Positions 2,779 to 39,434 of a DNA stretch of 45,151 bases are shown piece after piece (the stretch's first letter is position 1; each line of letters begins with the position of its first letter). This DNA comes from Saccoglossus kowalevskii (Eukaryota; Hemichordata; Enteropneusta; Harrimaniidae), in assembly GCF_000003605.2 (NCBI RefSeq), contig NW_003122412.1, positions 41,700 through 86,850 of the forward strand, in the 5' to 3' direction. The position numbers were made by a program, and so were the translations under genes. The notes beneath the pieces are model-generated. The model saw only the letters and a list, made by a program, of their open reading frames with translations, searched no databases and had not been told where the DNA came from.

Positions 2779-2788
2779 GGAATTCCCC
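2779..2788 (-). promoter_or_regulatory. NF-kB/Rel consensus site upstream of receptor A
   Basis: The + strand reads GGAATTCCCC, so the minus strand reads GGGGAATTCC, a strict match to GGGRNNYYCC. It lies about 485 bp before the ATG of gene A. A near copy of the context, GTAATAGGTATTCCCC, occurs again around 2927-2941 with one mismatch to the consensus, about 100 bp before a TATAAG. A further one-mismatch site, GGGGAATTCA, is at 3183-3192. Binding is inferred. Confidence 0.45.
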
Positions 2789-3040
2789 ACGCAAATACTA
2801 AGGGCGTATACAAGGTAAAGTCTTTATGATTGTAATGAACTGTTTTCAAGAAAGATAAAACAAGCAATTTCGTCATCCGTGCAAAACTGTGGTTAGTTTG
2901 CATACAATATGTCCATTAATTATGAGTAATAGGTATTCCCCTGGGTACATTAATATACTAAAGTTGTGTAATTAATTGTGGGCGGGGTTGAACCACTCAG
3001 CCAGCCAACATATTAGAATATACGTGAAGTGTAACTCATC

Positions 3041-3046
3041 TATAAG
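3041..3046 (+). promoter_or_regulatory. Possible TATA box of receptor A
   Basis: TATAAG lies about 230 bp before the preferred ATG at 3273. Transcription would then start near 3070, just before an earlier in-frame ATG at 3093. It is weaker than the TATAAAAAG boxes of receptors B and F. Confidence 0.35.
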
Positions 3047-3272
3047 CGTGTTTTTCTTTATTTAAATCTACTTTATTACTTTTCTGCTCAAAATGCACAG
3101 GTTACGGAACTTGGTCTCAACACACATCCCAAATGGCATACCCCTATCACTATGGTATCACTCACAGAACCAATACATACTAGGGGAATTCAACAATGAC
3201 GCACTAACTATTGTTAATTGTTTTCAAACAACGACGACAGTGGACAGAATCTACTCAACAACAGCAGTCAAA

Positions 3273-5568
3273 ATGAATTCATTCACGACCACGGAAAAAC
3301 ATTTCCGATATTTACAGATAATCGCGTGTGTTTTTCTACTTTTCCCACAAAATTCATTGATAGCTCTCGAACTGCCCCGACCAGTCAATCCTTGTGACGA
3401 TGAATATTTCTACAGAGGCGAGGCTTTTGGTTGTAACCCGTGTACGATATGCAGAAACGCCGAGCATATGAATGGATGTGAACAATGTTGTAAGTTGTAT
3501 TTCAAAACATATGAAAGTATACACATATTAACTATTAACAGTATAATAATTTTAATAATGTCAAACAAAAAAAAACATTATTTCTCAACTCTTAATATTA
3601 ATAAATTAAGCTTAATTGAAACTGACAAACGGAGTATACGAAATCATACATCACTGTAAGAAATTAAATTCATGAGCCAATTGAACATGTTTCAAGGGAC
3701 AAGATTTTATTTTTTATTTTACATGTTGTTGTATGTCTATATTAAGAATATCAATTATCAGTAAGGTAATTTCACCCTTCTCACATTAACTGGCATGTAT
3801 ATTTGTTAGTTACAGATCTCAAGTGTGATCCTGGTTGGTTTTTTCGCAATAAGGACTATGGTTGCCACCCATGTATTGTATGTACGACGCCTGATTATCT
3901 ACCTGGATGTAATGAATGTGGTAAGTAACACAAACATCACATATAAAACATGTCATATATAAAACGTAACTCCTTTCAGATCAGGCATCCAAAAATAATT
4001 GTGTACACAATAGATTAGACATCCAGTGGCTTGTTATGAATTGATTGGATGAATTCATATTTTATTTATGAATAGATTGGTATATTACTATGTTTTAAAT
4101 ATGTTGTTTATGCCTCTTTTACAGTTCAATGTATGTATATTTTTAACTATATAATTATATAATTACTTTGTCTTTTATTCAGCTTTATTCAGCTTCTATT
4201 TACAGTCTGAGATTGCATTGAACTTTAGTTTGAAATTGTAAAATATTTCAATGTATTTGTTCTATAGTTTTCTCAACGACTGAATCATTGCCAGTTGAAT
4301 TGAGTCTAACAACGTTAGCAGGGGATATTACAGTTGATAGTCATATTGGTAAGGCACTATTATTATCAATTCATAAGCACACTGTTACAGGGAAGAGTAG
4401 ACCCAGAGATGACTTAAAGATGACCCAAAGATCCTGTTGATCATTGTCATGCCTGTGATTCAGTTCAACATTTTTTTGAACTGAACATGAATGAAATTCA
4501 TATCAAAATAACAATATAAATCTATTATTGCTAATAATAGTTAATTCTGAATATCAAAGCGTTTCTTTTAAATATTTTTATACCACAGATACAGACTCAT
4601 TGGTAGTGTCTACGCTAGCAGATAACGTGATGGTTAATGATAACAATTTTCCTAAGAAAAGACAAGGTAAGACAAAAGATAAGTGTTGAAATGATTGTTC
4701 ATTTACAAAACAGACTTGATTTTTTTTACATTACTGCGTTTAATATAAATAATTAACTAAAAGCCATTTTTGCATAATGTCGCTTACATTTACTATGTTT
4801 ATTCACTATGTTCAATTTTCGCGAGTTTTTATACACACACAAAAATGCATTTGGAGTGGTCCAAGACAAATATTGTAATTCGTAAGGAAGCACAACATGA
4901 TTCAAACTACTGTCGTCCGATCCCGTCACATAGTATTTTTGGCAAAATGTTTATTTAAATTTTAAATATAACGTCTAACATTTTTGGACGAATGCGTTTG
5001 TAAAAATCAATGAAACGGGGGGGGGGGCATTAATCCAATTAGCTACTGTAAATTTTCACAGTTCTCAAATTATGTTTATAACGTTTTTGGGCCGTTGGCC
5101 ATATATCTATCTATATATATATAATGAAAATAAATATGTTCACTATACATGCAGACATGTGAAGACAATTATGAAATTGCTAAACTATTTATTCTTTATT
5201 TGTGGTTTCAGAAATGTGGCTTGTATCAGCCATGATTTTAGGTGCTACGTTCGTTACATTATGTGCACTCGTCGTGTGTATGGTGTGGAAAAAAATTCTT
5301 AATAATATAAAGAAAAGGCGGCATCGTCAACAATACGACACTGAAGGTGAGTATAACAGCGACTTGTTAGTTCTTATCAACATTAGAACACTTCTAATCC
5401 AATCATTAATCCATAAATGTAACACTGACACTGTTATTAATATTTGCAGCAATATACATGAATGGGAAATATGAAACAAGATTAACAACACCAGTCAAAT
5501 ATGCCGACCACCTCACACGTTTTGGACAAGATTTACCACACCAGCCTGTCCAAGAAACCTGTTTGTGA
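3273..5568 (+). CDS. Receptor A: Fn14-like TNF receptor with two cysteine-rich modules and PVQET tail
   Basis: Probable TNF-receptor-superfamily protein at the cell surface that binds a TNF-type ligand and recruits TRAF adaptors. Exons: 3273-3489, 3816-3920, 4268-4348, 4589-4666, 5212-5346, 5450-5568. All have GT-AG borders and phase 1, and the joined frame is 735 bases (244 aa plus TGA). Residues 13-32 look like a signal peptide. CRD1 has Cys 41, 54, 57, 60, 69, 72; CRD2 has Cys 76, 89, 92, 95, 104, 107; both have Fn14 spacing. Residues 108-160 form a Thr/Ser/Val-rich stalk and 163-186 the membrane segment, followed by the basic stop-transfer KKRRHR. PVQET at 238-242 matches the CD40 TRAF2/3 motif. 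An in-frame ATG at 3093 would add 60 residues, but 3273 places the signal peptide near the N-terminus. AATAAA occurs at 6481 and 6500. Family assignment is strong; the ligand is unknown. Confidence 0.85.
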
Positions 5569-6252
5569 GATTCTGTGCCCGACAACGACCGGTTTACAAG
5601 TCATGTTTACAACATTATTAATTTATTTATTTTATAAACCATGGAATCTATTAATTTAAATAGCAGAATTGGTACTAGCTGAATACTTTGTGAGAGCCAT
5701 TCACTCAACTAGCGACGTTCGAAAAATTATAATCATTATATCGCAAGAAATATACACTCTGTACCAGAAATGTATAAACGCGCACCACTTGAATCCCTAA
5801 GCAATGGGAAAAGTGATATGTTTGAGACTATACTGAAGCCTGAACCGTATCGTTGATGATTAACCACGTGTAGCGGTCAATATGTAAAAACCGGTTATAG
5901 GGACACCGGGTACATAATTTGAAATACATTCCAATGTATTCAATTGATTACGCTTATTAAAAAAAATATATATTTCCATTATTTGTAACAATCCTGGTGC
6001 GCGTTAACAGCAACCTTATTTGAGCAGCAGATATGCCGTTGGGAACCAGAGCATAAAAGATTTTTAACTTCGAATATCAAGTACAGTACCGAAATTGAGG
6101 TTAAAGTTCGCGTCGAATGTGATACATACACACCATAATGAATTATGTAAGTTATTAATGCTGACAAATATTGTAATTGCATAATGATTGTTGGTGGTTT
6201 TATTTTATTTATTTATTTGTTCAACATGCATGTATTTTGAAAACATAACAAA
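5569..6252. other. 3' flank of receptor A
   Basis: No second gene is seen after the stop of receptor A. The stretch is AT-rich and probably holds its 3' UTR. The nearest clear AATAAA signals are at 6481-6486 and 6500-6505, about 0.9 kb after the stop. Confidence 0.35.
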
Positions 6253-6299
6253 TGGAATTTCCTTGTCTTGTCATAGCTATTTAAAGAAGGGGATTTCCC
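6253..6299 (+). promoter_or_regulatory. Pair of NF-kB/Rel-like sites between A and B
   Basis: TGGAATTTCC at 6253-6262 resembles the site in the human IL-8 promoter. GGGGATTTCCC at 6289-6299 is a strict GGGRNNYYCC match. They lie 26 bp apart, 0.7 kb after the stop of A and 3 kb before B. No exon follows directly, so an intergenic enhancer or a chance pair are both possible. Confidence 0.3.
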
Positions 6300-6839
6300 T
6301 ACAGGAACTGATGCCGAGTTTGCTTATAGTCAATGTATTGATACATTGGTTAGTAATAACAGTGTTGTTAGTAAAATGTTCAGCTCCGATGGGGGAGCAC
6401 ATTTGAAACAAACAACATGCTAATTATCAAATTTGTAAAAACCTAAAACACAGAACATTGTAAACGCTAGAATATATTTAAATAAACACACATTCATCAA
6501 ATAAAGTTATTTTAAATAGTTTCTAGACTAGAAAATGTTTCAATCATATTTTACTCGAAAGCAACAAAAAGAGATAAAAATAAGTCATCTGAAGATGACA
6601 CAGCCCCCACTTGTCAGATGTGATTATAGTTATATGAATTATAAAGTTTGAATGTATATGTATAAAATCGGGTAGGAAGATTAAGTTGAAAATCAAAAGT
6701 ATGTTACTCAAAGTTAACAGGTAGGACATCTCTATTAAATTTGGTGAAATTTGCATCAGTTTTAACAAAAATTCACAATCAATTGAATATGGATTTACAT
6801 GAACTATTAGTTTCAAAATTCAAAATTAATTAAACATAT

Positions 6840-8912: not shown

Positions 8913-8923
8913 GGGATTTTCCC
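8913..8923 (+). promoter_or_regulatory. NF-kB/Rel consensus site upstream of receptor B
   Basis: GGGATTTTCCC contains a strict GGGRNNYYCC match and lies about 370 bp before the ATG of receptor B and 165 bp before its denser site cluster. Binding is inferred. Confidence 0.45.
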
Positions 8924-9086
8924 ACCACTGTATTGTTATTTATGTATTTTTACCAACATAGAAGCCTAGACGGTCGTCTTCGCTGTATAAAAAAAATAAT
9001 TAATATATACTACCTTGCGTTATCATTATATTATTATATATTTGACGTGTTATTTCAATATTTTATATGAGGTAATTATCTATCAA

Positions 9087-9121
9087 GGGAAACCCCCTAG
9101 GGAACCCCCTGGGGGTTTCCC
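9087..9121 (+). promoter_or_regulatory. Three packed NF-kB/Rel sites forming a palindrome, receptor B promoter
   Basis: Within 35 bp there are three strict GGGRNNYYCC matches: GGGAAACCCC (9087-9096), GGGAACCCCC (9100-9109) and GGGGTTTCCC (9112-9121). The outer two are reverse complements, so the block could also form a hairpin with an 11-bp stem. It ends 9 bp before a TATAAAAAG box and 163 bp before the ATG. The combination is typical of a strongly inducible Rel-controlled promoter, which is inferred. Confidence 0.65.
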
Positions 9122-9130
9122 AGCCTTAAT

Positions 9131-9139
9131 TATAAAAAG
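9131..9139 (+). promoter_or_regulatory. TATA box of receptor B
   Basis: TATAAAAAG begins 10 bp after the end of the NF-kB-like cluster. A start site about 30 bp on (near 9160) would give a 5' UTR of about 120 bases before the ATG at 9284. The same nonamer occurs upstream of receptor F. Confidence 0.6.
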
Positions 9140-9283
9140 GGTGACATATGTACAAATGCAATACGTCAACCTACAGAGCGGTGTATCATACACTCTTATA
9201 ACTGACGGATGCGTTGTGTAAAATAACATTGATTCGAAACTACTTATTAGCTAATTCAAAATTATTCAAAACTCGTTAGTAAA

Positions 9284-10924
9284 ATGGCTGGACATACAGT
9301 GAGTGTTATGTGGGTAACTGAATTTTTGACGCTATTAATATTGTTGGTGGCAATTCAAGTAGCGACGCGTCAACAGTGCGGAGACGGGCAATTTTACAGG
9401 GGTGAACATTTCGGCTGTAACCCATGTAAACTGTGCACATCTTCAGACGACATACCTGGCTGTGAAGAATGCTGTAAGTATGGCTCAACTAGAAGATTAT
9501 TAACCGATCGTAGTAATTGGAAATGTAGAGTGTAATAATGTATCCAGATAAATCACTGAAGTGACTGACTAATTTTATTTTTGTATTTGTCAGACTCACG
9601 TCATTGTGAAAATGGTTGGTTCTTTCACGGTAAAGACTATGGCTGTCACCCTTGTAGTGTGTGCAAGACACCTGACGATTTACCTGGATGTGATGAATGC
9701 GGTAAACAATATATACTATATTTTATACAACACTTGATTTCACGCAAAGGTGAACAGGTGGCAAATTTAGTAACTCTGTGCAGATTTATAATTTCAGTGA
9801 TCGGTCCAGAATGCCCTCCATTGTTGATGATGACATAACTTACATTAACTCACTAACTAAATCAAAACCACTAAATCAAGTGTCTACTATTACACGGGAC
9901 CACCATTATCAGTATACACCCGCGTCATTCCGCGGCAGCCAAGATTGTATGCCCACCTCTTGCTGGCGGTATGCAAATTAGTTAAAATGGCAACACCAAA
10001 CACGCGTTGTTCACGTGTTCTTGGAGAAGTATGGCGTGTAAGCTATATGCATACTCTATGAACTACAGAACAGAACATTCTTATTTTTGTTGACACCACT
10101 TTATAAAGTCACTGAATAGTCCACAGTATTTAACGTTAGTCTTACTATTTGGTTATTTAGATTTTTCTACATCTGAGCCACAAACACTAACAGCAAGTGA
10201 TTTGAAGAATGACGAAGCAGTGATATCAGAAGTTGACGATGACGTAGTGAATAAGGACAATCGAAATTCAGGTATGGCTGTGTTTCTATTTCAAAACGTA
10301 TTTCCCTAGTATTTTAATGCAGAGTTTATGTTCGATCTAGTACTGAAAAAAGGCTGACGGTGTTTTCTTCGCTTGTAAACAGACGGTAACCCCGCGACAG
10401 TATGGGTACATATTACAGTTGCAGTGGGCGTTGCACTCATCGGACTCATGAGTGCACTGGCAGTCTTCGCTTTAATTCACAGACGCAGAAGGAACACATA
10501 AACGCGTGACGTAGTTCATAATGATACTAGAGTACACGACACCCAAGGTATGTTAGTTGCATGTTAACATTTTGCTGCCGGCAAGCATTCAATGCAATCA
10601 CTCTGATCAAAGAAGACAATATACCAAACAGTTCGGTCGAATATTAACACTTGCTCATTTTCTCTTTCAGTCAATTTTCAGAACGATAAGTTTGAACAAG
10701 TATTAGTTCCAGCCCGGGGGCAACAAACCAAACTCGACGGTCAGTGTGCGCAATACGATGCAATTTCTGTCATTCATTCAGGAGGATCAAACTTCCATGG
10801 ACAAGAATCACTTCCACTTAAGTTAGCCTCAGATGATCACGATGTGTTAAGCCGTAGCAACCATAGTGTGTATTGTGACGATACCGAACGCAAGCAACTA
10901 GTAGATATAACTACCAAAATATAA
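9284..10924 (+). CDS. Receptor B: Fn14-like TNF receptor with in-frame stop after the membrane segment
   Basis: Paralogue of receptor A. Exons: 9284-9473, 9594-9701, 10161-10271, 10383-10547, 10671-10924, all phase 1 with GT-AG borders. Residues 11-27 are the signal-peptide core. CRD1 has Cys 32, 45, 48, 51, 60, 63; CRD2 has Cys 68, 81, 84, 87, 96, 99, and its WFF-KDYGCHPC core is very close to that of A. An acidic stalk covers 100-136 and the membrane segment about 143-166, followed by RRRR. Then TAA (10499-10501) stops the frame after 175 aa. The rest of the exon and the whole last exon stay open in the same frame for about 100 more codons to TAA at 10922. Either the product is a tail-less, decoy-like receptor, or the stop is a recent mutation, allele or sequence error. 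I see no canonical TRAF motif in the tail. AATAAA is at 11933. Confidence 0.8.
10499..10501 (+). other. In-frame TAA just after the membrane exon's basic anchor (receptor B)
   Basis: The frame reads ...RRRRNT then TAA, in a 165-base exon that otherwise keeps phase 1. A single base change from CAA or GAA would explain it. The downstream sequence has no further stop until the expected end of the gene. Confidence 0.8.
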
Positions 10925-11979: not shown

Positions 11980-12028
11980 GGGAATACCCGCCAACTATCA
12001 TACAATCACCTCATGCAGGGTATTTCCC
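11980..12028 (+). promoter_or_regulatory. Rel/Dorsal-type sites upstream of receptor C
   Basis: GGGAATACCC (11980-11989) and GGGTATTTCCC (12018-12028) fit the looser Rel/Dorsal pattern of GGG, four or five A/T, then CC, though not the strict vertebrate consensus. They lie 100-150 bp before the ATG at 12129, the same position as the sites of the other receptors. I see no TATA box here. Confidence 0.4.
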
Positions 12029-12128: not shown

Positions 12129-15100
12129 ATGGCTGTTAGCAGGAAATTGTCCGCATACTATTGGCTCGCATGTCTCACCATTCTACTAACAATTACCAAG
12201 GCCGAAAAACAGTGCAACGATGGCGAGTTTTTTAAAACCGGCGAATGTCATATATGTGAGAGCATTTGTTACGGTTCCAACGCCGTGAAGGAGTGTAACC
12301 AGTGTTGGACACGTAAGTACCAGTCGCCAACTGATCTACTAAGTAATCGATAAATCATTGTTGATAACAAAAATGTATTGTTCAAGCAGCATATCGCCGA
12401 TCGGTTATCGGATTTGAACTCGGGTTTTCCAGTTTCACGGTGTTGTTTTCAAGTTTGTGTAGTGCACACAACCAGTGAATTGAAATTTGTCCCGAATTGG
12501 CCATTGAATAATAACATCCAAAAAAAAATACTGTTGTAACTGAGTTTGCCAACTAATCAAATAAGGGCTCTTATATCGCTTCGGTACGGCAGGACTTAAA
12601 CAGAGCTAACAATAGATCGACACCGTACTACGTCCCACACAAACAAATTAAACAATTACAAACTCTCTCGAAATGATCAAGATAGGGAATAAAAATGTTG
12701 GCTGATGTTAGAGTACATATCAGAGTAATTAATTTCCACGTACACGGAAGATGGGATAAGAAAAAAAACAACAACAACTACGCCACAAAACTTGGAACGA
12801 TTCCAATTGACGGGTGCTTACTGTGTCCATTGTTAACGGCAAACAATGATATTACTGTTAAACCCAATACACTGAATGAGACCATAGGTAAATAACAGCT
12901 CCCCTGCACATGAATTGTTTATTGTTGATGCTCTAATCTGCCACCCTGGCATATGCTGCAATATAAAATCCATTTAACAATTAAACTATATATCAAACAA
13001 TGAATCAATCCTACATTCCAAATTTGTAATTATTATGATGATTTGTATACTTGTGTGTCTTACACATTGTTTTGTTTTATTCTGGAGTTCATAACTTTCC
13101 ATATAATTTCACATTTTTTATGGGTTTTTTTGACTTATCAACTGGTTATAAATTTAAATATCCAATGAGTTAAATATTATTTCTACTCTAACAAATAAGT
13201 TACAAATAACTTAGTTTTGCCGATGGGGTCGCTCTTTCATCATGTAGGGATTGAATATTTAAATAATGTTCAATTATTGGATGTCAACATATATATATAT
13301 TTGTTATTTCGAGTAGTTGGAGAATTATTAGTACCTTATTTCAAAGAAAAATCATATACCGATTTTTATGTAAATTGATTTTAATCTTATACTTTCATCA
13401 AATAAAACATAAGAAATCTGTATATTGTAACAATGGCATTGTGTTATTCCGACTACAAATATTTTATTAATTGGATTGCAAAATATTGTTGACACATTTC
13501 GTTGATTGTGATTGTAATATTTTTTATCACGATATATATTATACTTTTAAATTCACGTTTACTTTGATTGTTTAACTTTTATACTAGTAATAAGTTATAA
13601 TAAGAATTTACCAGTCTCCCTACACCAAAATGTTGAATACAAATGTATGTGTCTGCGACATGTACCGGTCCCTTACGTTTATAATTACCTCGCGTGATTT
13701 ACGATATCAGTGTGTTTATTCTAATATTTCTTTGTTGTTCTATTAGTAACACAAATGAAAATACTAAAAACAGTCAATTAAAATAGAAAACAAATAAAAA
13801 ACGCGATTTAGAAGAACTAAGAATTTAGGAGTATCTAAAGATTTGCATAAAGTAACTACGATCAAAAGGTCAGACAAATCAAACAATGGAAATCGACAAT
13901 ATGGCGCCTGTCACGGTTATATGGTGACATATTAACACCGCGAAAAACATATAAACTAGATATAGTAGTATATCTTGATAAGCACTCAACATAAATTATT
14001 GTGTTATATCGGTGTATTCGCCTGAATGACCGTGATGTTTGGTAATGTGCGAGTCATAGTAGAACTTTGATCTTGGGCGTATAATGCAAGGTTAATATGA
14101 AACGGTCAACATACTTATATGTGTGAAACCTCGTATACCACCAGGAGAATTTGCTGTACATTTGACTTTGAATTATAACTCATTTAACCTTTCTTCCCGC
14201 ATAATTATTTTACTGAATCAAGTTTCATATTAGTTACATCGTGGCTTTCTCTACAGTAACGTTATCGCTGCTTTACAAACAATCTGCTTATATAGCTGTC
14301 AGGGAAGGATTGAGACTGTAAACGGGGGTGGTGTGAACCGGAGATCTTTATTCGGAGTCTTGACATCAGATAAGTACAAAAGTTGTTTCTGGGCGTTGGC
14401 CCAACGGCCAAGCCCAGAGAGCAAACAAGTGGACCAGGTCCGGTGTGTCTCCCTGAGTATATATCTGTGTCCTCTCTTTAAGTCTAAAGTAACATGTCTT
14501 TTTGTAAGCTAAATCACGTGATTCAAATTGAACATTGAAAGTGATTCAATACACCCGCATAAGTTTCCCGAAATACATTGAATAAAAATACAAAAGTGAT
14601 TTTAGCACCTCCACATCGTGGGTAAATTTGTCGCAGGTGATAATGTTTTACGAATTATATTGTTACAAGCGGTGTCATACACTGCCAGCTGCCCATATAA
14701 GACATACTTGCTAAAAGCGACACGGATTTTGTTTCAGAAACCACTCTTGTAGATAGCAATGTGAAGATAGGCTTGGTATTGTTTCAATACAAGCGCCACC
14801 CGTGGGAATCCTAACCAAGTCCATGACGGGTGTCTGTACGAGCGATATGACATAGCTTAAATTAATAAAAAAAGATAGAATGAACAAATCTACAATGTCT
14901 CGTGTCTTGAAACTCTTTCAATTTTATGCAGACAGATTCAATGTTATCGCCAGTTGTTCTAATGAATGTGTGGCCGTATGAGGGAAAAACAACAGCATTA
15001 TCGTTTTCAAAAAATGGTGGCGCTATATACGTGACCTCATACATTACATTAAAGCGAGAGAGTCGTCATCTGCGATGCGTCAGATGGCCATAGCGTGTTA

Positions 15101-16358
15101 TTGTTTACAAACAAGAGTCTACCTTGTGTGTTTTAGCCTGTGTTGTTATCGTCGCTTGGGACTCAATTCCCAGGCGTTCGCAGGTGACGACCCTCCCGCT
15201 TTAATACATTAAATGGTTTAGTTTCAGAAGCAATGTTATAAACTTATAACATTGTGCAGCCGTGACTAATCTGAAAGTCCAATTCTCAACTCATGTATTA
15301 TGATGAGCCATGGCAAATGAAACTACTCATGATTGTTCATTTCATCTCGTCCTAACGTTTTTTGGTGGATTGGTCTTGAAATATTAAATCACTCTAGAGG
15401 GCGCAATGCATGTCTTTTGGGGCGTAGTAACTCATGTTAATCACATTTGATCAGCGAAAATGTTTTTATATAGAAAAGTAAAACTATAGCGGAAAGATTC
15501 TAGTTATAAAGTTAAAGTCTTCTCTATACTGTTATATGTATAGTCAAGGGTCATACAAACGCATAAAACTATCGTGTACTTCTTGTTATTTAATTTTAAT
15601 TTAAAATGACTCGCCGTATATGATTATAGTATTGACCTTTTCATTACTAACACCAATACTAAATCTCCCTTTGTTATAGGATCCACAAGTGACGCAACAT
15701 CAACATTTACCAGTTCTCATCAAATCACAAAAGAACCAATCAAATATGTTATTGACACCGACTTGAAGGTAGAAGTAGGTAAGTGCATATTTACATTGCA
15801 AGACAACTTGCATTAGTATGACGTAATCATATATATGCACATCATCGTATTTAAATATTTCATTATGCACCATATCTTTTTTCCATTACAGAGAAAATAA
15901 AAGAGATGGATGCAGTTATGCTATTTGTTATATGCGCGTTATGTGTTCTGGTTATATGCGGGATTATTTTGGTTTTATTTGTTTTTGTACTGAGGAGATC
16001 GTGGACACCTCGTGGAAGTGGAAACAACCCAGTAGATACCGAAGGTAAATGCAGTACAATAATATAACGCCCATACAAACGGTCTAAACAGGTTGTTGTA
16101 ATAGTACTAAGGGCTATTACAATGAATGTTCAATATTTCGAAACATATTGATATAGTTATCTAGTTTAAATACGATGACAGTAATATGAACCGAGACAAT
16201 GTATTTTATTTTATGCAGCACGACTCGGCGCGTCAGGTGATGTGGAAGTTGGTGTAATTCGACATAGTGCCGGAATTAATGGTCACCGACCAATACAAGA
16301 CCACGAGAAACATTCTTCTGATGTGCCTGGGACCCCTAGCCTCATGGAAAATGTTTAA
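12129..16358 (+). CDS. Receptor C: single-module BCMA/TACI-like TNF receptor
   Basis: Exons: 12129-12312, 15680-15778, 15892-16044, 16219-16358, all phase 1. The joined frame is 576 bases (191 aa). Signal-peptide core at residues 12-25. One cysteine-rich module has Cys 29, 40, 43, 47, 56, 59, spacing x10-x2-x3-x8-x2, followed by Trp. The C-x2-C-x3-C core resembles BCMA and TACI rather than Fn14. A Ser/Thr-rich stalk covers 62-94, the membrane segment 103-125 (very hydrophobic, ends RRSW), and the tail contains PIQDHE at 170-175, which resembles but does not strictly match a TRAF motif. Intron 1 is 3.4 kb, unusually long for this locus, and could hide another exon. A segment at about 12840-12890 ends in a phase-1 GTAAAT donor and encodes Thr/Asn-rich sequence, but has no good acceptor. 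Start chosen as the first ATG before a signal peptide. Confidence 0.75.
14291..14667 (+). mobile_element. Possible solo LTR in intron 1 of receptor C
   Basis: The segment could run from TGTCAGGGAAGG (about 14297) to TTGTTACA (about 14667). It contains a TATATA-like box near 14457, AATAAA near 14580 and a strong hairpin at 14389-14417 (CTGGGC..TTGGCC / GGCCAA.GCCCAG). What follows (AGCGGTGTCA) faintly resembles a gypsy-type primer-binding start. I see no clear target-site duplication and no gag or pol. Tentative. Confidence 0.2.
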
Positions 16359-19060: not shown

Positions 19061-19262
19061 GAATAATTAATGGTTGGCCCGAACGCACAGCACAGTTGGA
19101 GGCGTGGCCTGTTCAGAATTTGTCAACAACCAATCATAAGACTGGTTACGAACCACATCGAGGTTACGACTCGGTTAGCCTTGCTCAACTGGTTTGTAAC
19201 CTGTCTTGTGATTGGTTCTTCGAACTGTGCCGTGCGTTCGAGCCAACCGTTAATTATCATAA
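19060..19262. repeat. Palindromic foldback/MITE-like element next to the gap
   Basis: Its two arms are imperfect reverse complements. The left arm starts TTAATGGTTGGCCCGAACG and includes AACCAATCATAAGACTGG. The right arm includes GTCTTGTGATTGGTT and ends CGTTCGAGCCAACCGTTAA. CCAAT and its complement appear in both arms. The element ends 3-4 bases before the run of N, which suggests the hairpin itself hampered assembly. Confidence 0.6.
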
Positions 19263-19265
19263 ATG

Positions 19266-20159: not shown

Positions 20160-20740
20160 AGTTTTTGTGGTAATAAATATGCTAATGAGTCACACTCCAA
20201 ACACTGGTGGCGCTCTCACTCCCGTTCATCTCGTTCGGGTTTTCGGCACGTTCGGGTTTTCGGGTACCAGTTTTTGGAGTGTGTTAATGAGTTGGCTGGT
20301 TCCCGCCTCAAGTGTCATGGCGCACCAAGCCACAAGAGGCCGGTAACTAGTAACGAATCCGGCATTCTGATTGGTCCATCACTTTCTCGTTCCTTGTTCT
20401 ATTTACCGGGACGTACCATATATAAAGCAGGAGTTTCCCACGCTCACAAAAGTTATAATATAAAACTGTTTTTGTTGTTGTTATCACTTTGCACGAAAAT
20501 AGAGAGAAATGTTAGAACCACCTCAAGTATGGAGTCGAAGCAGGGGAATGAATGAATGTGGTGTTGTTGTAGTATTACACACACGTTTACGGTTTTCAAA
20601 TTACGTCACTTGGTCACGTGCCTTTGGTTCGGAATCCCGGCCCAGTGGAACATTATTGCGCATTATTGCGATTACTAGTTACCTGCGTCCAACTTACCAC
20701 TCGCAAGGGACGTCGGGAACCAGAGAAGCTAATGAGTAGC
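20160..20740. mobile_element. Foldback-type non-autonomous element with nested inverted repeats
   Basis: An inner inverted repeat pairs CACACTCCAAACACTGGT (about 20190) with ACCAGTTTTTGGAGTGTG (about 20265), with two direct copies of CGTTCGGGTTTTCGG between them. On a larger scale CTGGTTCCCGCC (about 20298) pairs with GTCGGGAACCAG (about 20712), and GGTAACTAGTAAC (about 20341) pairs with ATTACTAGTTACC (about 20671). CTAATGAGT occurs near both ends. The interior contains TATATAAAG near 20421. No transposase is encoded. It may belong with the palindrome at 19060. Confidence 0.45.
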
Positions 20741-21656: not shown

Positions 21657-21666
21657 GGGAAATTCC
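21657..21666 (+). promoter_or_regulatory. NF-kB/Rel consensus site upstream of pseudogene D
   Basis: GGGAAATTCC is a strict GGGRNNYYCC match about 350 bp before the former start of gene D. It may be a relic of the promoter layout seen in the intact paralogues. Confidence 0.4.
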
Positions 21667-22011
21667 AATTAGGTAATTGGGAAGGGACTAAACTATGTCA
21701 CTATTTACAGTAATAACAACGAATAATATTGAGATTATACATGCACATAGTTAGCTGGCTATCCAAAGTCCAGACAAATTAAACGAAGCGGAAAATTATT
21801 AGAATGATTAACACATTCCTGTATGAATATATTCGGTAAATGCACTTTACATATCGAAACAACCCCTTCACATCAAACTTGGGAAAATTCACACCACAAA
21901 AAATAAATTCCACTTCGCGTGAGTTTGTCAACTTGATAACACTGTAATGGTCATACCATAGTCGATAACCAAGGACGCAGCATCTTCGCCGTCAACTCTA
22001 CACTGTTAAAA

Positions 22012-23296
22012 ATGAAGCAGAGCGCTAAACGATTCTATAAAAAACGATTTTTACGATATTATTCATTGTATTTGAAGTAACGAGTCTGGGTAACCAGTGC
22101 CAAAGTGGGCATTTCTTCAGGGGAGTACATTTTGGTTGCCATCCATGTAAGCTATGTATACTACAACACAACACAACACACTGCCAGGCTGTGAACAGTG
22201 CAGTAAATGAAACCTGTGAGATTACTGTATTTTATCGGATTATGAAAAAAATATGTATTCGTTTAGTTCAAATGGCTACTTTTGATTACCCGTAATTTTA
22301 AAAAGACACAGAAAAATGATCAACCCAGAAGGGGGTAACAATATAGTTTACGCTTTACCAAGACCAAATTCAGCAAAACATGTTTTATTATTTGTAGATG
22401 TGGACCCTTGTGCCCTAGGATGGTTCTATCAAGGAACTAGTTTTGGATTACAACCATGCAAGACATGCAAATCCACCGATGTTTTGCCGGGATGTAGACA
22501 GTGGGGTATGACATTTATTATAATATAACAATGTATAAATTAAATATTATTCAACAAACGTACATTTGTAGAGAAATCGTTGGCACATTCAATTGTTTCC
22601 ACCATGTAGTTATACATGTGTATTTTATTGTTAAATGCAAAGCGTTCATCACATCTCGATCTATATATATTTTTATATAATTCAGCCAATTTATTTCAGC
22701 ATAACCAAATCGTACACAACAACAACACCACAACCGAAATTGACGACTTCTGCTGCTGTGGCGGGTAGTCTCATTAGTTTTACTGGTACAGATTCACACA
22801 TTTTGTTTCTCATATGTAAAACGTACTAAGATTATTTTTTTTCAATATAATAAATACTTAGAATATCTAGTAAAATTTTCTCTCTGTTATGGGATGATTA
22901 TTATTATTATTCCCAGATCTCAATACACAAATCCTATGGATATGTTCAACAGCGGGCTTGGTATTTGTCGGAGTGTTTTTTGCCCTAACCATTTACTACA
23001 TAATTACAAGAAGTAAAATGCAAGGCACTATTGTAAAAATAAAATAAAAGAAATGGATCTCGAAGGTGCCTATACATGCGTTAGATAGCAAAGCTAACAT
23101 TCTACTTTTGAGTTGCATTGTTTCTCACGCGATTTCACTATTTCAACTGTATTTACTTTCAGCAAAATACGAACCCAACAATAAGAAAATTACATCAACG
23201 CTGATTGAGAAACAGGAATCCAAAGATGCTGATCTAAATATGGCACATCCAAGATATCATAATCAACAACTGGTGTGTGGAACGAATGGACACTAA
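22012..23296 (+). pseudogene. Receptor D: decayed Fn14-like TNF receptor
   Basis: All exon types are recognisable but damaged. Exon 1: a candidate ATG at 22012 meets TAA at 22078. The cysteine-rich part (from Cys codon 22098 to 22202) is in another frame and is broken again in a CAACA-type microsatellite about 8 bases longer than the family needs. Exon 2 (22398-22505) keeps the family length of 108 bases and phase 1, but two cysteines are replaced: GC in the core became GL, and the last Cys became Trp. A Thr-rich stalk segment near 22700-22815 is out of phase. The membrane exon (22917-23065) has a good hydrophobic segment, then TAA at 23045 and a length that breaks the phase. The tail exon (23163-23296) is intact, 44 codons plus TAA. 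Several independent lesions make a functional product very unlikely. Confidence 0.8.
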
Positions 23297-25257
23297 CATC
23301 CTTGCCACCAAGACACTGAACCACATGGGCAATCTCCTGACATATATGACATTTTGAGGGGACGTGATTGAACATGATTTCATAAACTGATGTTACAATG
23401 ATATAACATATTCAAGGCCAGTTATTAACGAATTGCATCAACTGCGCCGGATATATACACATATAAAATGAAAATGACACAACACGTATGTGCTTTCTTA
23501 TCGATATCGATACATAATTTCAATCGGTTAAGAATCAAGTAATATACATGACATCATTTCTCGCAGTACGTTACAGTGGATATGTATATATATTATAACG
23601 GGAAATATAAGACATTTAATTCCAGCTTTAAACACGTCAATGGCTGGTGTGTGTGAATATTTATCTCCATCCAACATAAACATATTCACCACATTATCAT
23701 TTTATTGATTACGTCACGTCATATCTATCGCTGCTGTCAATAATGACAATTTATGGTTTACGATATTACCTGCTGCAGGGTATGGAATGGAATGTCTCAT
23801 GGTTATAATAGTAATTTATTTACGCATGTATCACAAAATGACTTCATGACTGAGGTAATTCGGTTATCATCGCTTTGAACAGTGAATTTAGTTTGGGAAT
23901 CCAACTCTTATAAACAGTAGTGATAACTTTTTAAGGGCATACCTACCATTTTTCTAATACAAGAAATCAGAAACATGGCACCGCCAACAGAAAATGCCAT
24001 GAGTAGATTCAACAATATACGAGGTTCACAGGTACAAATAAAAGTTGGACGAGATATCGCAATGCATATGTGAAACTTGAACTGATTGAAATGATTTTAT
24101 CCACTTTTACCCCAACTTCCTCATATGTACATTGCTCAATAAATGAGCTTTCCTATACAGCTAAATATAATCAGCATCCGACAGAATGCATTTTACTCTT
24201 AAAATATTTCTATACTGAACAGCAGTATGTAATTTGTACCAACTATTAGATTAATTCGATCTATTTAATTATGGAATTAGTAATACAGTTGTCCGACCTG
24301 TACGAAGGTTTAATTGGTGCATTTATTATTGCGAGTATTAGTAGGGTTTGTAGATTAATTCGGTATATTTAACATAATACTGATAAAATTACTGCAAATT
24401 ATCCACCATGGATTATGATAAATTGGTAACATTAAGAGTGGTTATAGATCTATCAGATTAGGCGCTAGTTGAAGTGCGAAAGAAAGGAGAGTTTGGAAAT
24501 GGAGCAAACATATAAAGAAAGAAGTCATAACGAGAGAGCGTTGCCAAAAGAAATAGCGAAGCAGAAAAGGAGCAGGAAAATAGGGTAATTGCATAGGTAA
24601 GTATGGGAAATATTCCCATTGACTCAAGCATAAGTCGGAGATGGTAACATCAGGATGGAATTAGATAAGACTGAAACGATCAAGTCACCCGAATGATCGA
24701 ACACCAAGAAGCACGGCAGTAAAGAGTTTTGTTTATGTACTGATCATAAGTCATTGAAGTATTCAAATAGTAACTGCACTGTGAATATTTGCATAATAAA
24801 GTCATCATTTTATTTAGGTTTAGAGGTGACTTAAGGTTTCGTGGTGGATTATCTTAGTAGGTAGTACTCGTGTTTTGATGGTTACTATGTCATGATCATG
24901 GTTTATACACGTATAACGAAAATACGCGGTAAATACGCGCTGGGTCGAAAACACCCTGCCAACAGAAGTCACAGAAGAGACGTTATATAGTAGTATACGT
25001 CTATTCATGTATAATGTTGATTTGTCAAAGATTGTGAAACGGCCACGGTTTGAATTGACTAGAAAAATAATAATTGTATTTATTGTATTACCTCCAAAGA
25101 ATTCTTTATTTCTTAATTGCAATAAAGTGAACTATAGGTAATCATTTATGCAAATGGAACCAGAACGCTCTACAATGTCTTGAATGCATAGTACACAGTT
25201 TGAAGCCCTGTGACAACTAGTACTGTATTGCTGACACCATTTATTCACTTAAAATTC
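23297..25257. other. Intergenic between D and the retroelement
   Basis: AT-rich. No coding segment, RNA gene or mobile element that I can name. A minus-strand open frame at 24820-25122 shows no motif. Confidence 0.4.
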
Positions 25258-25410: not shown

Positions 25411-27235
25411 TACACACCCTTCATGTTATGTACTGAAAACCCACACCAATTTTGGGAGCATATTAATAAATTAGGGTCAGTCAAACGTAAAGGTATCCCA
25501 ATGGAAGTTTACGATGACGGTGGTCATATTACAAGTAATCATAACATTGTTTTAAATAAGCGGAAACACGATTCTGATTTGATGGATTTGACACTAATTT
25601 CTACGAACATATTTTATATCATAAATTGGTCCTAAACAAATTGAGTTGGATAATCCTCTGTATGATAGTAATTCTGAATTAAATAAGAATTTCTCTACTG
25701 TGGAAATTGAGACAGTGGCAGCAAAAGCAATGTCAGGGAAGGAAGTTGGGGTAGATACAATCCCGTATGAAGTGCTTAAGAATGACAGTTCTGTTGCCAT
25801 TTTAACACATCTTTTCAACTTTGCTTTGACAGTGCGAAAGTTCCATGCATCTGGAAAAAAACCCATTAATTTGTCCAATTCTGAAAGCGAGGTCGAGTGA
25901 CCCTCGCGTTCCAATGAATTATATGGGCATAAGCATACAGTCCACTTTATCAAAACTTTACCTGAAATTAACCTGAAACAGAAAGGAATAACTCTTGATA
26001 ATAACGTTAATGTCAGTATTTTGTTATACGCTGATGATATCGTGTTGTTAGCTGACAAGGAAGTTGATATGCAAATGATGTTAAGTCATTCAAATAGTTG
26101 GTGTGAAAAATGGAAAATTAGGGTTAATAATGTGAAATCGAAGATGTTACATTTTAGAAAAGCCAGTGAAGCTAGAAGTGCATTCCAATTTTGCATTGGT
26201 GATGACGTGTTAGATTATACCGATAAGTATAAATATTTGGAGATTGTTTTGGATGAATACGTTGATTATTCTGTAACTGCTAGTATCGCAGCAGACTCGG
26301 CAAGTAGAGCGTTAAGAGCGTTATTCGTTAAATTTAAAACTCACAAGAATCTTGGGTTCTCCACATTTACAAAGTTGTATGATGCCAGTGTCGCGCCTAT
26401 ACTCGATTATTGTTCTGGAAATTGGGGTTTTAGTAAATTTGTGCGAAATGATTCAAAATAGGGCTTTAAGATTTTTTCTTGGCACCCATAGGTTTCCCCA
26501 CTCCCGGCTAGGTGGGTCTCGTGCAGAGATCGGAGATGGGCCCATATGGATAGACTGTGGAAGCGTATTAGTGAACTTGATGACAATAGACTAGTTAAAC
26601 AAGTATTTATGTGGGATCAATCCCTAAATTATAATATAATTATAATATTTGGTCATCGGAGATTTACCAAATCGACTTAAATTATGAACACCTAATTGAC
26701 GCAAATATACATGCATTGAGAGAAAATATTGCGAGGAGGTCAGAGTCATCTTGGTCAGAAGATGTTAGTCACAAACCAAAGTTACGTGTCTATGCAACTT
26801 TTAAATTAATTTGAATATAAACCCAAAAAGTGCGTGCTAATAAATTTAATTCAACTCAGCTCAACTGCGCATGGGCACTTTGCCTCTCCGTATCGAGACT
26901 GGGTGATTTAGACACGAGCCTGTAAGTGAACGAATCTGTAAATTTTGTGATGCAAACGTTGTTGAGGACGGGATGTATTTTTTGTTTGACTGTCAGCAAT
27001 ACAATGAATTGAGGCATGAGTATCTAGATTCAATTCTTAATGAAACAACTGGCATCTCACGGGAACAAATACTGGTTCGTTTATTTTCAGGCCCAATAAG
27101 AAAACTTTTTTTTTTATAGAAAAGGCTTTTTACAAAAGAAGAAATTTGTTGTACGTCTGAATTAAATGAACTACACGACTGTATTGTTGATATATTATTT
27201 CAAGCTCTCTTTCATAACCTTTATTTGTAAATGTA
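25411..27235 (+). pseudogene. Broken non-LTR retrotransposon (reverse transcriptase remnant)
   Basis: Three consecutive parts of a LINE-type ORF2 can be read in shifting frames. At 25423-25580 is a linker (FWEHINKLG, GIPMEVYDDGG). At 25640-25880 is the start of the reverse transcriptase domain (VDTIPYEVLKN, ILTHLFNFAL). At 26000-26600 is the palm with the catalytic YADD box (LLYADDIVLLAD at 26015-26050), then the C-terminal part (TKLYDASVAPILDYCSG, RALRFFLGTHRF). About 26930-27040 encodes the end, with CKFCDANVVEDG. The central reverse-transcriptase motifs between about 25880 and 25930 are deleted, and there are several stops and frameshifts. Not functional. Family within the non-LTR elements not determined. 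Confidence 0.8.
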
Positions 27236-27600
27236 ATCATTATTATTTAATATGACATATAAGTCCACTGGGCTGCAGGTCACTATAATAAATTACAGTA
27301 ACTTACTACTTACTACTATAGTGACGTTCAAAGTACAATGACCGCCAATATAAATGACCTTGCTGTGTCTTTCACACAGGTTTAACGTGTACTCACACGC
27401 TGCGAAACTAGATAGTAGTTCAGAAATAAACATTCCATAACAATTTATTTCTCCAATTTAAGTATTATTATTTAATTTTGGCTATGACTAAAATGGTCAC
27501 TTTCGAACACACCACAGTGCGCTACTAGAATCGTATGATGTCATTTTGTTTTGGTTTTGTTTGCTTGATTTGATATCATTTCTATTTAAATATGTTAAAC
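27236..27600. other. Spacer before the receptor E promoter
   Basis: AT-rich; starts with TTACTACTTACTACTA-like simple sequence near 27300 that may be the tail of the retrotransposon. No gene seen. Confidence 0.3.
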
Positions 27601-27644
27601 GGAATTTCCACTGACCATAAATAGAAAAGAACTTGAGTATATAA
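27601..27644 (+). promoter_or_regulatory. Core promoter of receptor E: NF-kB-like site plus TATA box
   Basis: GGAATTTCC (27601-27609; with the preceding C it is one base short of the strict decamer, similar to the IL-8 promoter site) is followed 28 bp later by TATATAA (27638-27644). The ATG is at 27705, so a start site near 27670 would give a short 5' UTR of about 35 bases. Confidence 0.5.
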
Positions 27645-27704: not shown

Positions 27705-29229
27705 ATGCGTGCACCCATCAACACGTATTTCACCGCTTTATCTCTACTCATTCTGTTGACGGTTGTGTTGACGTCTGACGGCGCGATACACGACAACAAG
27801 TGTGAGGTTGGTTTCTTCTATGTACAAAACTTTGGTTGCAATCCGTGTAAGGTTTGCAAATCTACGGATTCCATGCCAGGTTGTGAACAGTGTCGTAAGT
27901 TGCGAAAGATAATCGTTTTGTAGTATAACTTTGATTAATCTACAAATCATATATTGTACTTTTAAAATGGTATAAATTAAATTGCACATAGTATTGTATT
28001 ATGCATGGTGTAAATGTGGTGTATAATTTTTATAGATTATAACACTTGCGATACTGGATGGTTTTACCAAGACGATAACTTCGGTTGCCAACCTTGTAAA
28101 ATATGCCAGGCTGCCGAGCACCTTCCTGGATGCGATCAATGTGGCAAGTGAAACTACATTAATAATTACTTACTTACACGCCAATTAGAGCAAAACTAGT
28201 TTGGAATATTGCAGTATTATTCTTCAGATTAGATATGAATTATAGTTTGATTGACCTAATTAAATATGCAAACATGTTTATATATTTTTGGAAAACATTA
28301 TGTCGCATCAAAACGAAAAAAATACGTATTTTCCAAAATGGCCGCAACCTTCATTGTAGCAATCTGACCTAGTCAATCAGGACGTGCATGCCTAGTGCCT
28401 AATGAAATATCTCCACAAATATATCATATATTTGTAAATTTAAGTTGTTGATAAATAATTTTACACCACCGAGAACTGAGTGGATTATTCGAAAAATGTA
28501 TTATTTTCTCAAGGTGTAGTGTTATTGATTATTGATATTGCACATCTTCTGCAATATAATTCACTGGCAGTATTGTGTGTTATTTTTATAGGTTTTCCAA
28601 CTACCGAACCTTCGATATCGCTAGAAACGCATGTAACATTATCAGGTGAGGCAAAATAAAAAAAAAATAATAAAAAAAAAAATAGGTCGGAATGTTAAAT
28701 TCGTTCACGTGGCCAATTTAATAAATCAATATACGAGTAATAATAATTGTATACTTTTTGACGTGAGTATATGCTACATACATGAAAGATCGAATTTGTT
28801 TTTCGACTTTAATTTAGCAAAGCAGAACGATATATCTTGGTTGGCCATAGCAGCAACAATTATGGCGCTGATGACGCTACCTTCAATCGTTTTCCTCATT
28901 TACTGTCAAAGGAAGAAAAAACCCAGAAAGTTATTGTCGGCGATCGCTCGATTCGATGTAGAAGGTAAGTAGTAACAAATGTACGGACGACAATGTCAAC
29001 TGAATTTAAGTAAATTGTATTCTTAGTTAACTGCATAAATACTACTGTTATTTTACTGTTTTCAGCTGGTCAGTGCCATCTGGTGACTGTGTCCAGACCA
29101 CCAAACACTATCTTTAATCTAGCCCCACCAGACCACATGGAAAATGCCGATGAAGGAAATGAACCAACACACATGCCTATTGAAGAAACCCGACAAACCG
29201 ATAGTCCGGTAAGCCTACAGTCGGAATGA
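27705..29229 (+). CDS. Receptor E: Fn14-like TNF receptor with two cysteine-rich modules and PIEET tail
   Basis: Exons: 27705-27894, 28036-28143, 28592-28645, 28818-28964, 29066-29229, all phase 1. The joined frame is 663 bases (220 aa). Exons 1 and 2 have the same lengths (190 and 108) as in receptor B. Signal-peptide core at residues 10-23. CRD1 has Cys 33, 45, 48, 51, 60, 63 (first gap x11); CRD2 has Cys 68, 81, 84, 87, 96, 99 (Fn14 spacing). The stalk is short (100-124). The membrane segment is at about 125-146, followed by QRKKKPRK. The tail holds PIEET at 204-208, the same pentapeptide as the TRAF-binding site of Fn14. Intron 2 begins with GC (GCAAGT at 28144) instead of GT. AATAAA at 29730 is a possible polyadenylation signal. 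Best-preserved complete receptor of the locus. Confidence 0.87.
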
Positions 29230-31570: not shown

Positions 31571-31584
31571 CCACTAGGTGGCGC
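31571..31584 (+). promoter_or_regulatory. CTCF-like motif
   Basis: CCACTAGGTGGCGC fits the full CTCF core CCASYAGRKGGCRS. It lies in the gene-poor interval between receptors E and F. Two sequences with the related core CTAGAGGGCGC occur at about 15394-15404 (in intron 1 of C) and about 32413-32423. CTCF is conserved in bilaterians; use of these sites is inferred, and they might instead sit inside dispersed repeats. Confidence 0.3.
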
Positions 31585-38200: not shown

Positions 38201-38465
38201 TCATCATCCATGAAATTATCAGTAACGACAAATACTAAATAAACGTGCTTATGCACAATTTTTAGTTTAGAGTCGCCGAGATATATATAATAGCATTGAT
38301 GTATACTCTTAAAGTAACAAAGTGAGTTTTAATCAAAACGTGTCTTACACAAGTCCTTACAATCGATCTATTATAGTATATATGGCATTATACAAGACAC
38401 ATTAACATTCGATAACAATATTTCAACTTTTTTCAATTAAATGAAAGAAGATATTTTTGGAGATC
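35276..38465. other. Gene-free stretch between the repeat copies
   Basis: AT-rich. From about 36565 to 37360 the sequence is less AT-rich and holds short + strand open segments (36568-36633, 36798-36995, 37079-37360) that read more like coding sequence than their surroundings, but I could not join them by splice sites or recognise a family. Nothing else seen. Confidence 0.3.
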
Positions 38466-38645
38466 AAAAGCAGATTGGCAAGGTATAATATTTAGAGGTG
38501 ACTCTCGATTAATACAAGAGACAAAATGGGGTATTTTTAAAAGTAAAATATCAATATTGATTTGAGCAATTCCTCCTCCATAAAAAAATACGAACATAAA
38601 AAGTGACCTCGAAATCTGTGAATGCGGCGGGGAGCAGAGTGCCAA
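38466..38645. repeat. Dispersed repeat, copy 2
   Basis: Second, more deleted copy of the segment at 35023-35275, same orientation. An internal piece of about 60 bases is missing relative to copy 1. Confidence 0.6.
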
Positions 38646-39359
38646 TAAACAATAGGGTTAAAATACCTGGCGCTGGTGTTAATTGGATACCGCAAACATA
38701 TTGCAACAGATAAGCCATAACATCAATGATTTTCTGGCTTAAGTTAAACCCAGAGGCGGTTCTATAACTTAATCCAAACACACTAACTTATTTCCTAGTG
38801 TCTTTGCTTAAACCACACATACTGACACGCCAAATAATGGAATAATTGTTTTATATTTAGTTCATCTTCTTGCAAATTTCACTAACCACGAAGTACATGT
38901 TAACATCAAGTTCTAAAACCACCCGCTATTTTTGTTTGAATAACCAATTATTTGTCCCTTAGATGACCAGGTGAATTCCTTGGGTTGTTCTAGAACTAAA
39001 TCCACGTGTCCTAGTCTCATTGGGCGGCTATTCCGCCAGCTAATCGCTGCGCAAAACAATAGCGTGGCGTCAAAAGTGTGATTGAAAATAATAAAACACC
39101 AGGGTTATCATAGTTGTTTATATGGTAATTATTGACTTTATAGGATAACTGTAGAATAACGCTCTGGGAATTTTACAAATTGAATCACCCACCTCCTAAA
39201 ACACAAACTCCCAATATTGGAAAAAAACTGTTGTAACGTACATGAAACCAGTCATAATGCGACGTTTTTATTGGTCTTTGCAATAATGAATGCCATATGT
39301 ATGATGTCAGATTTATTTCAACCATGTCATTATAACAGATCGGTTTGTCATTATAAACA
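38646..39359. other. Spacer upstream of receptor F
   Basis: No gene seen. Includes a short GC-richer stretch around 39020-39065 of unknown nature. Confidence 0.3.
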
Positions 39360-39370
39360 GGGAAAGTCCC
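39360..39370 (-). promoter_or_regulatory. NF-kB site upstream of receptor F
   Basis: The + strand reads GGGAAAGTCCC, so the minus strand reads GGGACTTTCCC, which contains the classical immunoglobulin-kappa/HIV-type NF-kB decamer GGGACTTTCC. It lies 55 bp before a TATAAAAAG box and about 150 bp before the likely ATG. Confidence 0.6.
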
Positions 39371-39425
39371 AATGTAACGTTGTTAATGAGAGGGGGTTAC
39401 CAGATGTTGAACAAAAAAGAACAGT

Positions 39426-39434
39426 TATAAAAAG
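39426..39434 (+). promoter_or_regulatory. TATA box of receptor F
   Basis: TATAAAAAG, identical to the box of receptor B. It predicts a start site near 39456, just before an in-frame ATG at 39475 and 64 bases before the ATG preferred here (39520). Confidence 0.55.

What the first reader, a model, noticed from the sequence alone, without database searches (positions are those of the whole stretch)
2779..39434. Shared NF-kB-site promoter layout across the receptor array
Strict sites precede A (2779), B (8913, 9087-9121), D (21657) and F (39361). Near or Dorsal-type sites precede E (27601) and C (11980, 12018). In B, E and F a TATA box follows within 60 bp. With G and C near 0.17 each (my rough estimate), a strict match is expected about once per 28 kb on both strands, so this clustering looks far from random. 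It predicts a positive loop: receptor to TRAF to NF-kB to receptor genes. I scanned by eye, not exhaustively.
Basis: partly seen in the sequence, partly recalled or inferred. Interest (0 to 1): 0.8.

Follow-up and report, generated by a model that had tools for sequence, protein, structure and literature searches.

The report
NF-kB sites before Fn14-like receptor genes
A cluster of six small cytokine-receptor genes in an unnamed animal carries far more binding sites for the immune switch NF-kB just ahead of its genes than chance gives, so these receptors are probably turned on by NF-kB, although the proposed self-amplifying loop is well supported for at most one gene.

Summary
Strict sites (GGGRNWYYCC) form 8 clusters in the window, 5 of them within 500 bp upstream of the six starts. 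Local dinucleotide shuffles average 0.07-0.08, and 0 of 300 and 0 of 500 reach 5. 0 of 1500 permuted motifs do. The rest of the window is near the genome rate: 3 clusters against 0.9-2.0 expected. Strict half-site pairs peak at 10-11 bp, as a Rel dimer needs, and none of 15 other motifs is as enriched.

It is weaker than claimed for two genes. E's site is an unremarkable one-mismatch hit; C has two near-sites. The "layout" is loose: positions and strands differ, and only B and F have a clear TATA.

The genes resemble Fn14 receptors (cysteine spacing; PIEET in E's tail). The positive loop is only partly supported. TRAF motifs occur only in A and E. B, with the richest promoter, has an in-frame stop after its membrane span and looks decoy-like. 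D looks decayed. NF-kB induction of the array is likely; the sign of the feedback is open. Expression data and an ordinary-promoter control were not available.

The parts
2779..2788 (-). strict kB site GGGGAATTCC upstream of A (-494)
2932..2941 (-). one-mismatch kB-like site GGGGAATACC upstream of A (-341), in a context like that of 2779 (by eye)
3273..5568 (+). gene A, 6 exons, 244 aa: leader, two Fn14-type Cys modules, membrane span, tail with PVQET
   Evidence: hand-made exon reading; motif
8913..8923 (+). strict kB site GGGATTTTCC(C) upstream of B (-371)
9087..9121 (.). triple kB cluster upstream of B (-197 to -163); outer sites are perfect 11-bp inverted-repeat arms; 9040-9283 found once in the readable genome
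9131..9138 (+). TATA box (TATAAAAA), 10 bp after the kB cluster
9284..10924 (+). gene B: two Cys modules, membrane span, then in-frame TAA at 10499-10501; the frame stays open through the rest of the tail
11980..11989 (+). near-site GGGAATACCC upstream of C (-149)
12018..12028 (+). Dorsal-type 11-mer GGGTATTTCCC upstream of C (-111)
12129..16358 (+). gene C: exon 1 12129-12309 (one Cys module), later exons roughly 15679-16358 (junctions not checked); no canonical TRAF motif in the tail read
21657..21667 (+). strict kB site GGGAAATTCC(A) upstream of D (-355); 21580-21760 found once in the readable genome
22012..23297 (+). D: degenerate receptor copy (stop and frame breaks around the first module, Cys replaced in the second); extent approximate
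27600..27609 (+). weak kB-like site CGGAATTTCC upstream of E (-105); not beyond chance on its own
27705..29229 (+). gene E, 5 exons: two Cys modules, membrane span, tail with PIEET
   Evidence: hand-made exon reading; motif
39360..39370 (-). strict kB site GGGACTTTCC(C) upstream of F (-114)
39426..39432 (+). TATA box (TATAAAA), 56 bp after the kB site
39475..39718 (+). gene F exon 1 (leader and one C-type Cys module); later exons not found

Best explanation
This is a tandem array of small Fn14-like TNF-receptor genes whose proximal promoters carry genuine, selectively kept Rel/NF-kB dimer sites. In life the array is probably induced when NF-kB is activated. Shown here: the sites, their position, their specificity and their excess over background. 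Inferred: binding, induction and selection. Receptor A (and possibly E) can pass the signal on to TRAF and NF-kB and so amplify. B, if its stop codon is real, makes a membrane receptor without a signalling tail that would soak up ligand and damp the response. The array would then be NF-kB-inducible with mixed rather than purely positive feedback.
For: 5 of 8 strict clusters lie within 500 bp upstream of six starts against about 0.06-0.14 expected. 0 of 1500 permuted motifs reach this. There is no clear excess elsewhere in the window. Strict half-site pairs peak at 10-11 bp. Of 16 motifs counted, kB included, only kB stands out so strongly. B, D and F promoter stretches are found once in the readable genome. 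Upstream regions share only short, non-corresponding matches, so the sites are not one recently copied block. RHD, TRAF and TNF matches exist in the genome. TRAF motifs occur in A and E. Fn14's TRAF-binding motif is given as PIEET (PMC13079164, passages), and Fn14 induction with positive feedback is discussed for mammals (PMC5504244, passages).
Against: No expression, binding or comparative data. E has no significant site. D, with a strict site, looks like a pseudogene. The one further receptor-like exon found elsewhere (C2716, L038, E = 0.365) has no site, even with one mismatch, in 1.5 kb upstream. The motif and the 500 bp cut-off come from the finding itself. Promoters of unrelated genes were not scored, so a general promoter enrichment is not excluded. 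GGGAA and TGGGAA are also enriched (17 against 4.5 and 9 against 1.9 expected), and with the loosest half-sites (GGR, YCC) the spacing one base shorter scores as high (7 against 6). The paper that names PIEET also reports that loss of the neighbouring KFTT, not of PIEET, abolished NF-kB activation by Fn14.
Confidence: 0.75

Rival explanations
1. Pure positive loop: receptor to TRAF to NF-kB to all receptor genes of the array.
For: A has both a strict site and PVQET; E has PIEET; pathway domains are present in the genome. A mammalian Fn14 loop is discussed in PMC5504244 (passages), and PMC5696327 states that TWEAK upregulates Fn14 in glioblastoma cells (passage).
Against: No canonical TRAF motif in C or in D's pieces; F's tail unseen; B's tail lies behind an in-frame TAA; E's kB site is not significant. 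In PMC5504244 TWEAK lowered LPS-induced Fn14 in the cells used, and in PMC13079164 PIEET is not the element whose loss abolished NF-kB activation.
Confidence: 0.3
2. The sites are bound by another GGGAA-binding factor (Su(H)/RBPJ, Ikaros-like or HIVEP/Schnurri-like zinc fingers), not Rel. These names and their consensus are recalled.
For: TGGGAA is enriched upstream (9 against 1.9 expected) and GGGAA too (17 against 4.5).
Against: Strict GGGR/YYCC pairs peak at Rel spacing (5 at 10 bp, 3 at 11 bp, 2 at 9 bp, 1 at 8 bp, 0 at 12-20 bp). The fuller GTGGGAA occurs once upstream. The strict sites of A and F do not themselves hold TGGGAA.
Confidence: 0.12
3. Promoters in general in this genome are rich in kB-like sites, so the array is nothing special.
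Against: Upstream GC (0.32-0.38) is not raised, and SP1, CRE, AP-1 and the like are not enriched to the same degree. The upstream DNA of L038 has no site.
Confidence: 0.1
4. Chance plus selective reading.
Against: The strict motif survives shuffles, permuted motifs, rotations, alternative starts, cut-offs of 200-1000 bp and removal of D.
Confidence: 0.03

Closest known systems
TWEAK receptor Fn14 (TNFRSF12A) and its NF-kB-linked autoinduction
   Same: Same C-x2-C-x2-C-x8-C-x2-C core as the solved Fn14 chain 2kn0 (aligned), small membrane receptor, PIEET in E as in Fn14, likely NF-kB induction.
   Different: Two modules in A, B and E against one in Fn14 (recalled); a six-gene tandem array; TATA in B and F whereas mammalian Fn14 promoters are said to lack a typical TATA (PMC3902304, passage); matches to 2kn0 only at E 0.36 and 0.88; no Pfam TNFR match.
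NF-kB-induced TNF receptors in vertebrates (for example CD40, TNFR2, Fas; recalled)
   Same: Receptor genes downstream of the factor they activate.
   Different: There, sites were validated experimentally (recalled); here only sequence.
Decoy TNF receptors lacking a signalling tail (TRAIL-R3 and the like; recalled)
   Same: B as assembled has ectodomain and membrane span but no tail.
   Different: B's downstream tail frame is still open, so the stop may be recent, polymorphic or an assembly error.

Membership tests
NF-kB/Rel target promoter | kB consensus in the proximal promoter beyond chance | tested here: met
   (A, B, D, F strict; C near-sites; E not significant)
NF-kB/Rel target promoter | two half-sites at dimer spacing | tested here: met
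   for GGGR/YYCC; with the loosest half-sites the peak is blurred (7 at 9 bp, 6 at 10 bp)
NF-kB/Rel target promoter | Rel binding and induction | not testable with these tools
   needs ChIP and expression data
NF-kB/Rel target promoter | conservation of sites in relatives | not testable with these tools
   the tool states that this genome has no relatives held
Fn14-type TNF receptor | C-x2-C-x2-C-x8-C-x2-C module after a leader | tested here: met
   A, B, E; C and F diverge
Fn14-type TNF receptor | statistically sure sequence match to the family | tested here: inconclusive
   2kn0 at E = 0.36 and 0.88 by profile; no TNFR Pfam family up to E = 1
Fn14-type TNF receptor | TRAF-binding motif in tail | tested here: inconclusive
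   met in A (PVQE) and E (PIEE), not in C or D's pieces; B stops before its tail; F unseen
Fn14-type TNF receptor | fold | tested here: inconclusive
   model of E's first exon, mean pLDDT 53.9, not usable

The most novel reading that the evidence does not exclude
An animal genome keeps a tandem set of Fn14-like receptors under independently maintained NF-kB sites, mixing tail-bearing amplifiers (A, E) with a tailless damper (B), so that one NF-kB pulse sets both gain and brake of the same ligand system. Because the promoter DNA no longer aligns while the sites remain at differing positions, the control would be kept by turnover of sites rather than by inherited copies.
Probability: 0.2. Interest if true: 0.65.

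Novelty: new member of a known kind. Interest (0 to 1): 0.45.

Why it matters
If true, NF-kB-driven expression of Fn14-like receptors, discussed for mammals, would extend to a receptor array of another, unidentified animal. It would give a compact natural case for asking how feedback through a receptor family is kept when promoters diverge. It also gives a clear list of sites for a reporter or ChIP test.

Tried and rejected
Tried without use. Pfam gave no TNFR family. The structure prediction of E's first exon was too poor (three-row alignment, pLDDT 53.9; submitted, collected), so no fold search was run. Rfam and tRNA scans were empty. Seven paper searches were made. Three of them asked about TNFR genes or kB sites in invertebrates; their listings (10 of 49, 2 of 2 and 5 of 5 papers) showed no title on such an array, which is thin evidence of absence. 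Passages only were read in PMC3902304, PMC13079164, PMC12206918, PMC5348407, PMC5696327 and PMC5504244; PMC12206918 and PMC5348407 gave nothing used. No paper was read whole.

Considered and rejected. (1) Chance or base composition. (2) Duplicated promoter blocks: the comparison of the six stretches (1200 bp before to 200 bp after each start) gives 9 short matches, four in exon 1 and five upstream (13-34 bp), none over the listed kB sites and none at corresponding distances. (3) Repeats: B, D and F promoter stretches are found once; A's stretch was asked for but did not complete. (4) Counting raw hits: 16 raw strict hits shrink to 8 clusters because palindromes and overlaps count several times. 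(5) Very loose GGRNNNYYCC: 41 window clusters, many from the satellite, whose unit contains GGGTCATTCC. In the permuted-motif test 3 of 1500 reached 8 or more window clusters, with 29-31 hits each and none upstream; I take these for satellite hits.
Full report
WHAT THE WINDOW IS. The window is G000:C1494:41700-86850 of an unnamed 572-Mb genome in 4830 contigs; the genes are intron-containing animal genes. I did not identify the species. Reading the genes by hand and splicing in a script gives A (3273-5568), B (9284-10924), E (27705-29229), exon 1 of C (12129-12309, later exons to about 16358 with junctions unchecked), exon 1 of F (39475-39718) and a degenerate copy D (about 22012-23297). A, B and E have a hydrophobic leader, two cysteine modules C-x(11-12)-C-x2-C-x2-C-x8-C-x2-C on separate exons, a membrane span and a tail frame. 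The C-x2-C-x2-C-x8-C-x2-C core is the spacing of the solved Fn14 chain 2kn0, which is also the only PDB match of A up to E = 10 (E = 0.36). These matches are weak, Pfam finds no TNFR family and the structure model was unusable, so 'Fn14-like' is a resemblance with fitting details, not a proven membership. E ends near PIEET, given as Fn14's TRAF-binding motif in PMC13079164 (passages read); A ends near PVQET. The same paper says that loss of the neighbouring KFTT, and not of PIEET, abolished NF-kB activation by Fn14.

THE OBSERVATION. Strict GGGRNWYYCC gives 16 raw hits, because palindromes and overlaps count several times; merged within 40 bp there are 8 clusters. Five lie in the 500 bp upstream of the six starts: A 1, B 2, D 1, F 1. 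Local dinucleotide shuffles of these same stretches give a mean of 0.07 (0 of 300 reach 5) and 0.08 (0 of 500). Shuffles of the whole window give a mean of 0.6 clusters against 8 (maximum 3 in 40 shuffles). Of 1500 column-permuted versions of the motif none reaches 5 upstream clusters or 4 genes. Circular shifts of the start set give p = 0.004 at 500 bp, 0.012 at 1000 bp and 0.043 at 300 bp. Of the eleven motif definitions, all exceed local shuffles at 500 bp (p 0.013 or less); by rotation ten of eleven are at p 0.041 or less, and the loosest, GGRNNNYYCC, is at 0.185.

GENOME BACKGROUND. The genome has 15,399 raw strict hits in 572 Mb. Of 20 stretches fetched (six of them flanks of the window's own contig) ten read entirely as N; the readable part, about 90 kb, holds one cluster. 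Depending on whether half of the genome is unread, the rate is 21 to 47 clusters per Mb. The 3 kb upstream then expects 0.06-0.14 clusters and has 5 (nominal Poisson P 8e-9 to 4e-7); the other 41.7 kb expects 0.9-2.0 and has 3 (P 0.06 to 0.32). Among the 79 clusters made by the first 100 listed places (of 15,399), no 44.7-kb span starting at a cluster holds more than 4, against 8 here (recount). N stretches lower that comparison, so I lean on the upstream test. Strict clusters per 500-bp bin over six genes: 5 at -500..0, none at -1000..-500, none at -1500..-1000, one at -2000..-1500 (D), none from 0 to +1500. Leaving out D, or using other start codons for A and F, keeps the excess at cut-offs of 200-1000 bp; at 150 bp one cluster or none remains.

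SPECIFICITY. Of 16 motifs counted in the same 3 kb (definitions recalled), kB is 5 against 0.08. The next ones are far weaker: SP1 2 against 0.21 (p = 0.020) and CRE half-site 5 against 1.67 (p = 0.016). With GGGR and YYCC held apart by k = 0 to 20 bases, upstream counts are 1, 2, 5 and 3 at k = 0-3, 0 at k = 4-12, and at most 1 at wider spacings; B's triple site contributes to several of these. The peak at 10-11 bp is what a Rel dimer site requires. With the loosest half-sites (GGR, YCC) the peak is blurred: 7 at 9 bp, 6 at 10 bp, 4 at 11 bp. GGGAA and TGGGAA are also enriched (17 against 4.5; 9 against 1.9), which leaves room for other GGGAA-binding factors.

WHAT DOES NOT HOLD AS STATED. 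E's site has a mismatch in the first G, and one-mismatch hits occur 1.7 per kb (raw, outside the satellite), so it carries no weight. C has two near-sites 38 bp apart, which is suggestive. The layout is not shared in detail: distances are -494 (A), -371 and -197 to -163 (B), -149 and -111 (C), -355 (D), -105 (E), -114 (F), on both strands. Clear TATA boxes follow only in B and F; E has weak ones; A, C and D have none in the 300 bp before the start by the four patterns used. The upstream sequences share only 13-34 bp matches at non-corresponding places, and B, D and F promoter stretches are found once in the readable genome; A's did not complete.

INDEPENDENT GENES. A protein search with B's leader and ectodomain finds 18 matches: nine in the window; one exon at C2716 (E = 0.365, L038) that reads as leader plus one Cys module, with a membrane-span reading after it; and eight at E 1.4-2.1 on two contigs, with stops inside, which I take for unrelated repeats. 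L038 has no kB site, even with one mismatch, in 1.5 kb upstream. A search with C's exon finds only C and, weakly, F. Six TNFR_c6 matches have no known starts and were not used.

MECHANISM. The genome has six Rel-homology matches on two contigs (best 67 bits over 45 positions), 14 TRAF-type zinc-finger matches and seven TNF matches (best E 1.4e-5; two with stops inside). Canonical [PSAT]-x-[QE]-E motifs (definition recalled) occur in A and E, not in C or D's pieces. Only A thus joins a strict promoter site to a TRAF motif. B, with the richest promoter (lone site, triple site, TATA), has TAA at 10499-10501 just after its membrane span (checked); the frame beyond stays open to the end of the last exon, so the stop is recent, variable or an assembly error, or splicing differs from my reading. 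If real, B is a tailless receptor and its induction would damp the response. D carries a strict site but is degenerate. Mammalian Fn14 is a precedent for induction with positive feedback (PMC5504244, discussion passages; PMC5696327, passage, says TWEAK upregulates Fn14 in glioblastoma cells), though in PMC5504244 TWEAK itself lowered LPS-induced Fn14. PMC3902304 (passage) names AP1 and SP1 sites in the Fn14 promoter and, in what I saw, no kB site. The Fn14 and NF-kB work by Tran and colleagues is known to me only from reference lists and recall.

VERDICT. The positive loop is partly supported, with mixed feedback at least as likely. This is a new instance of a known kind of regulation.

Noticed in passing
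window 10499-10501: In-frame TAA in B right after the membrane span, with the tail frame open beyond it through the last exon.
   Followed up: partly
window 22012-23297: D looks like a decayed receptor copy: broken frame near an acaac repeat and a Cys replaced twice in the second module.
   Followed up: partly
window 29066-29229: E's tail carries PIEET, the same five letters as the motif given for Fn14.
   Followed up: yes
window 42345-45150: 55-bp satellite, about 51 copies, running to the window's end; its unit holds a kB-like GGGTCATTCC.
   Followed up: partly
window 25901-26461: Open frame with YADDIVLLADK, by eye a reverse-transcriptase remnant of a non-LTR-like element upstream of E.
   Followed up: no
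window 19071-19265: Inverted repeat (by eye; the two arms were printed side by side) next to the 480-base run of N, like a foldback element.
   Followed up: no
L038 (G000:C2716:50516-50692): A further single-module small receptor-like exon outside the array, without kB sites in 1.5 kb upstream.
   Followed up: partly
window 20415-20440: A strict kB site (GGGAAACTCC, minus strand, 20430) sits just after ATATATAAA, about 1.6 kb before D, with no gene assigned.
   Followed up: no
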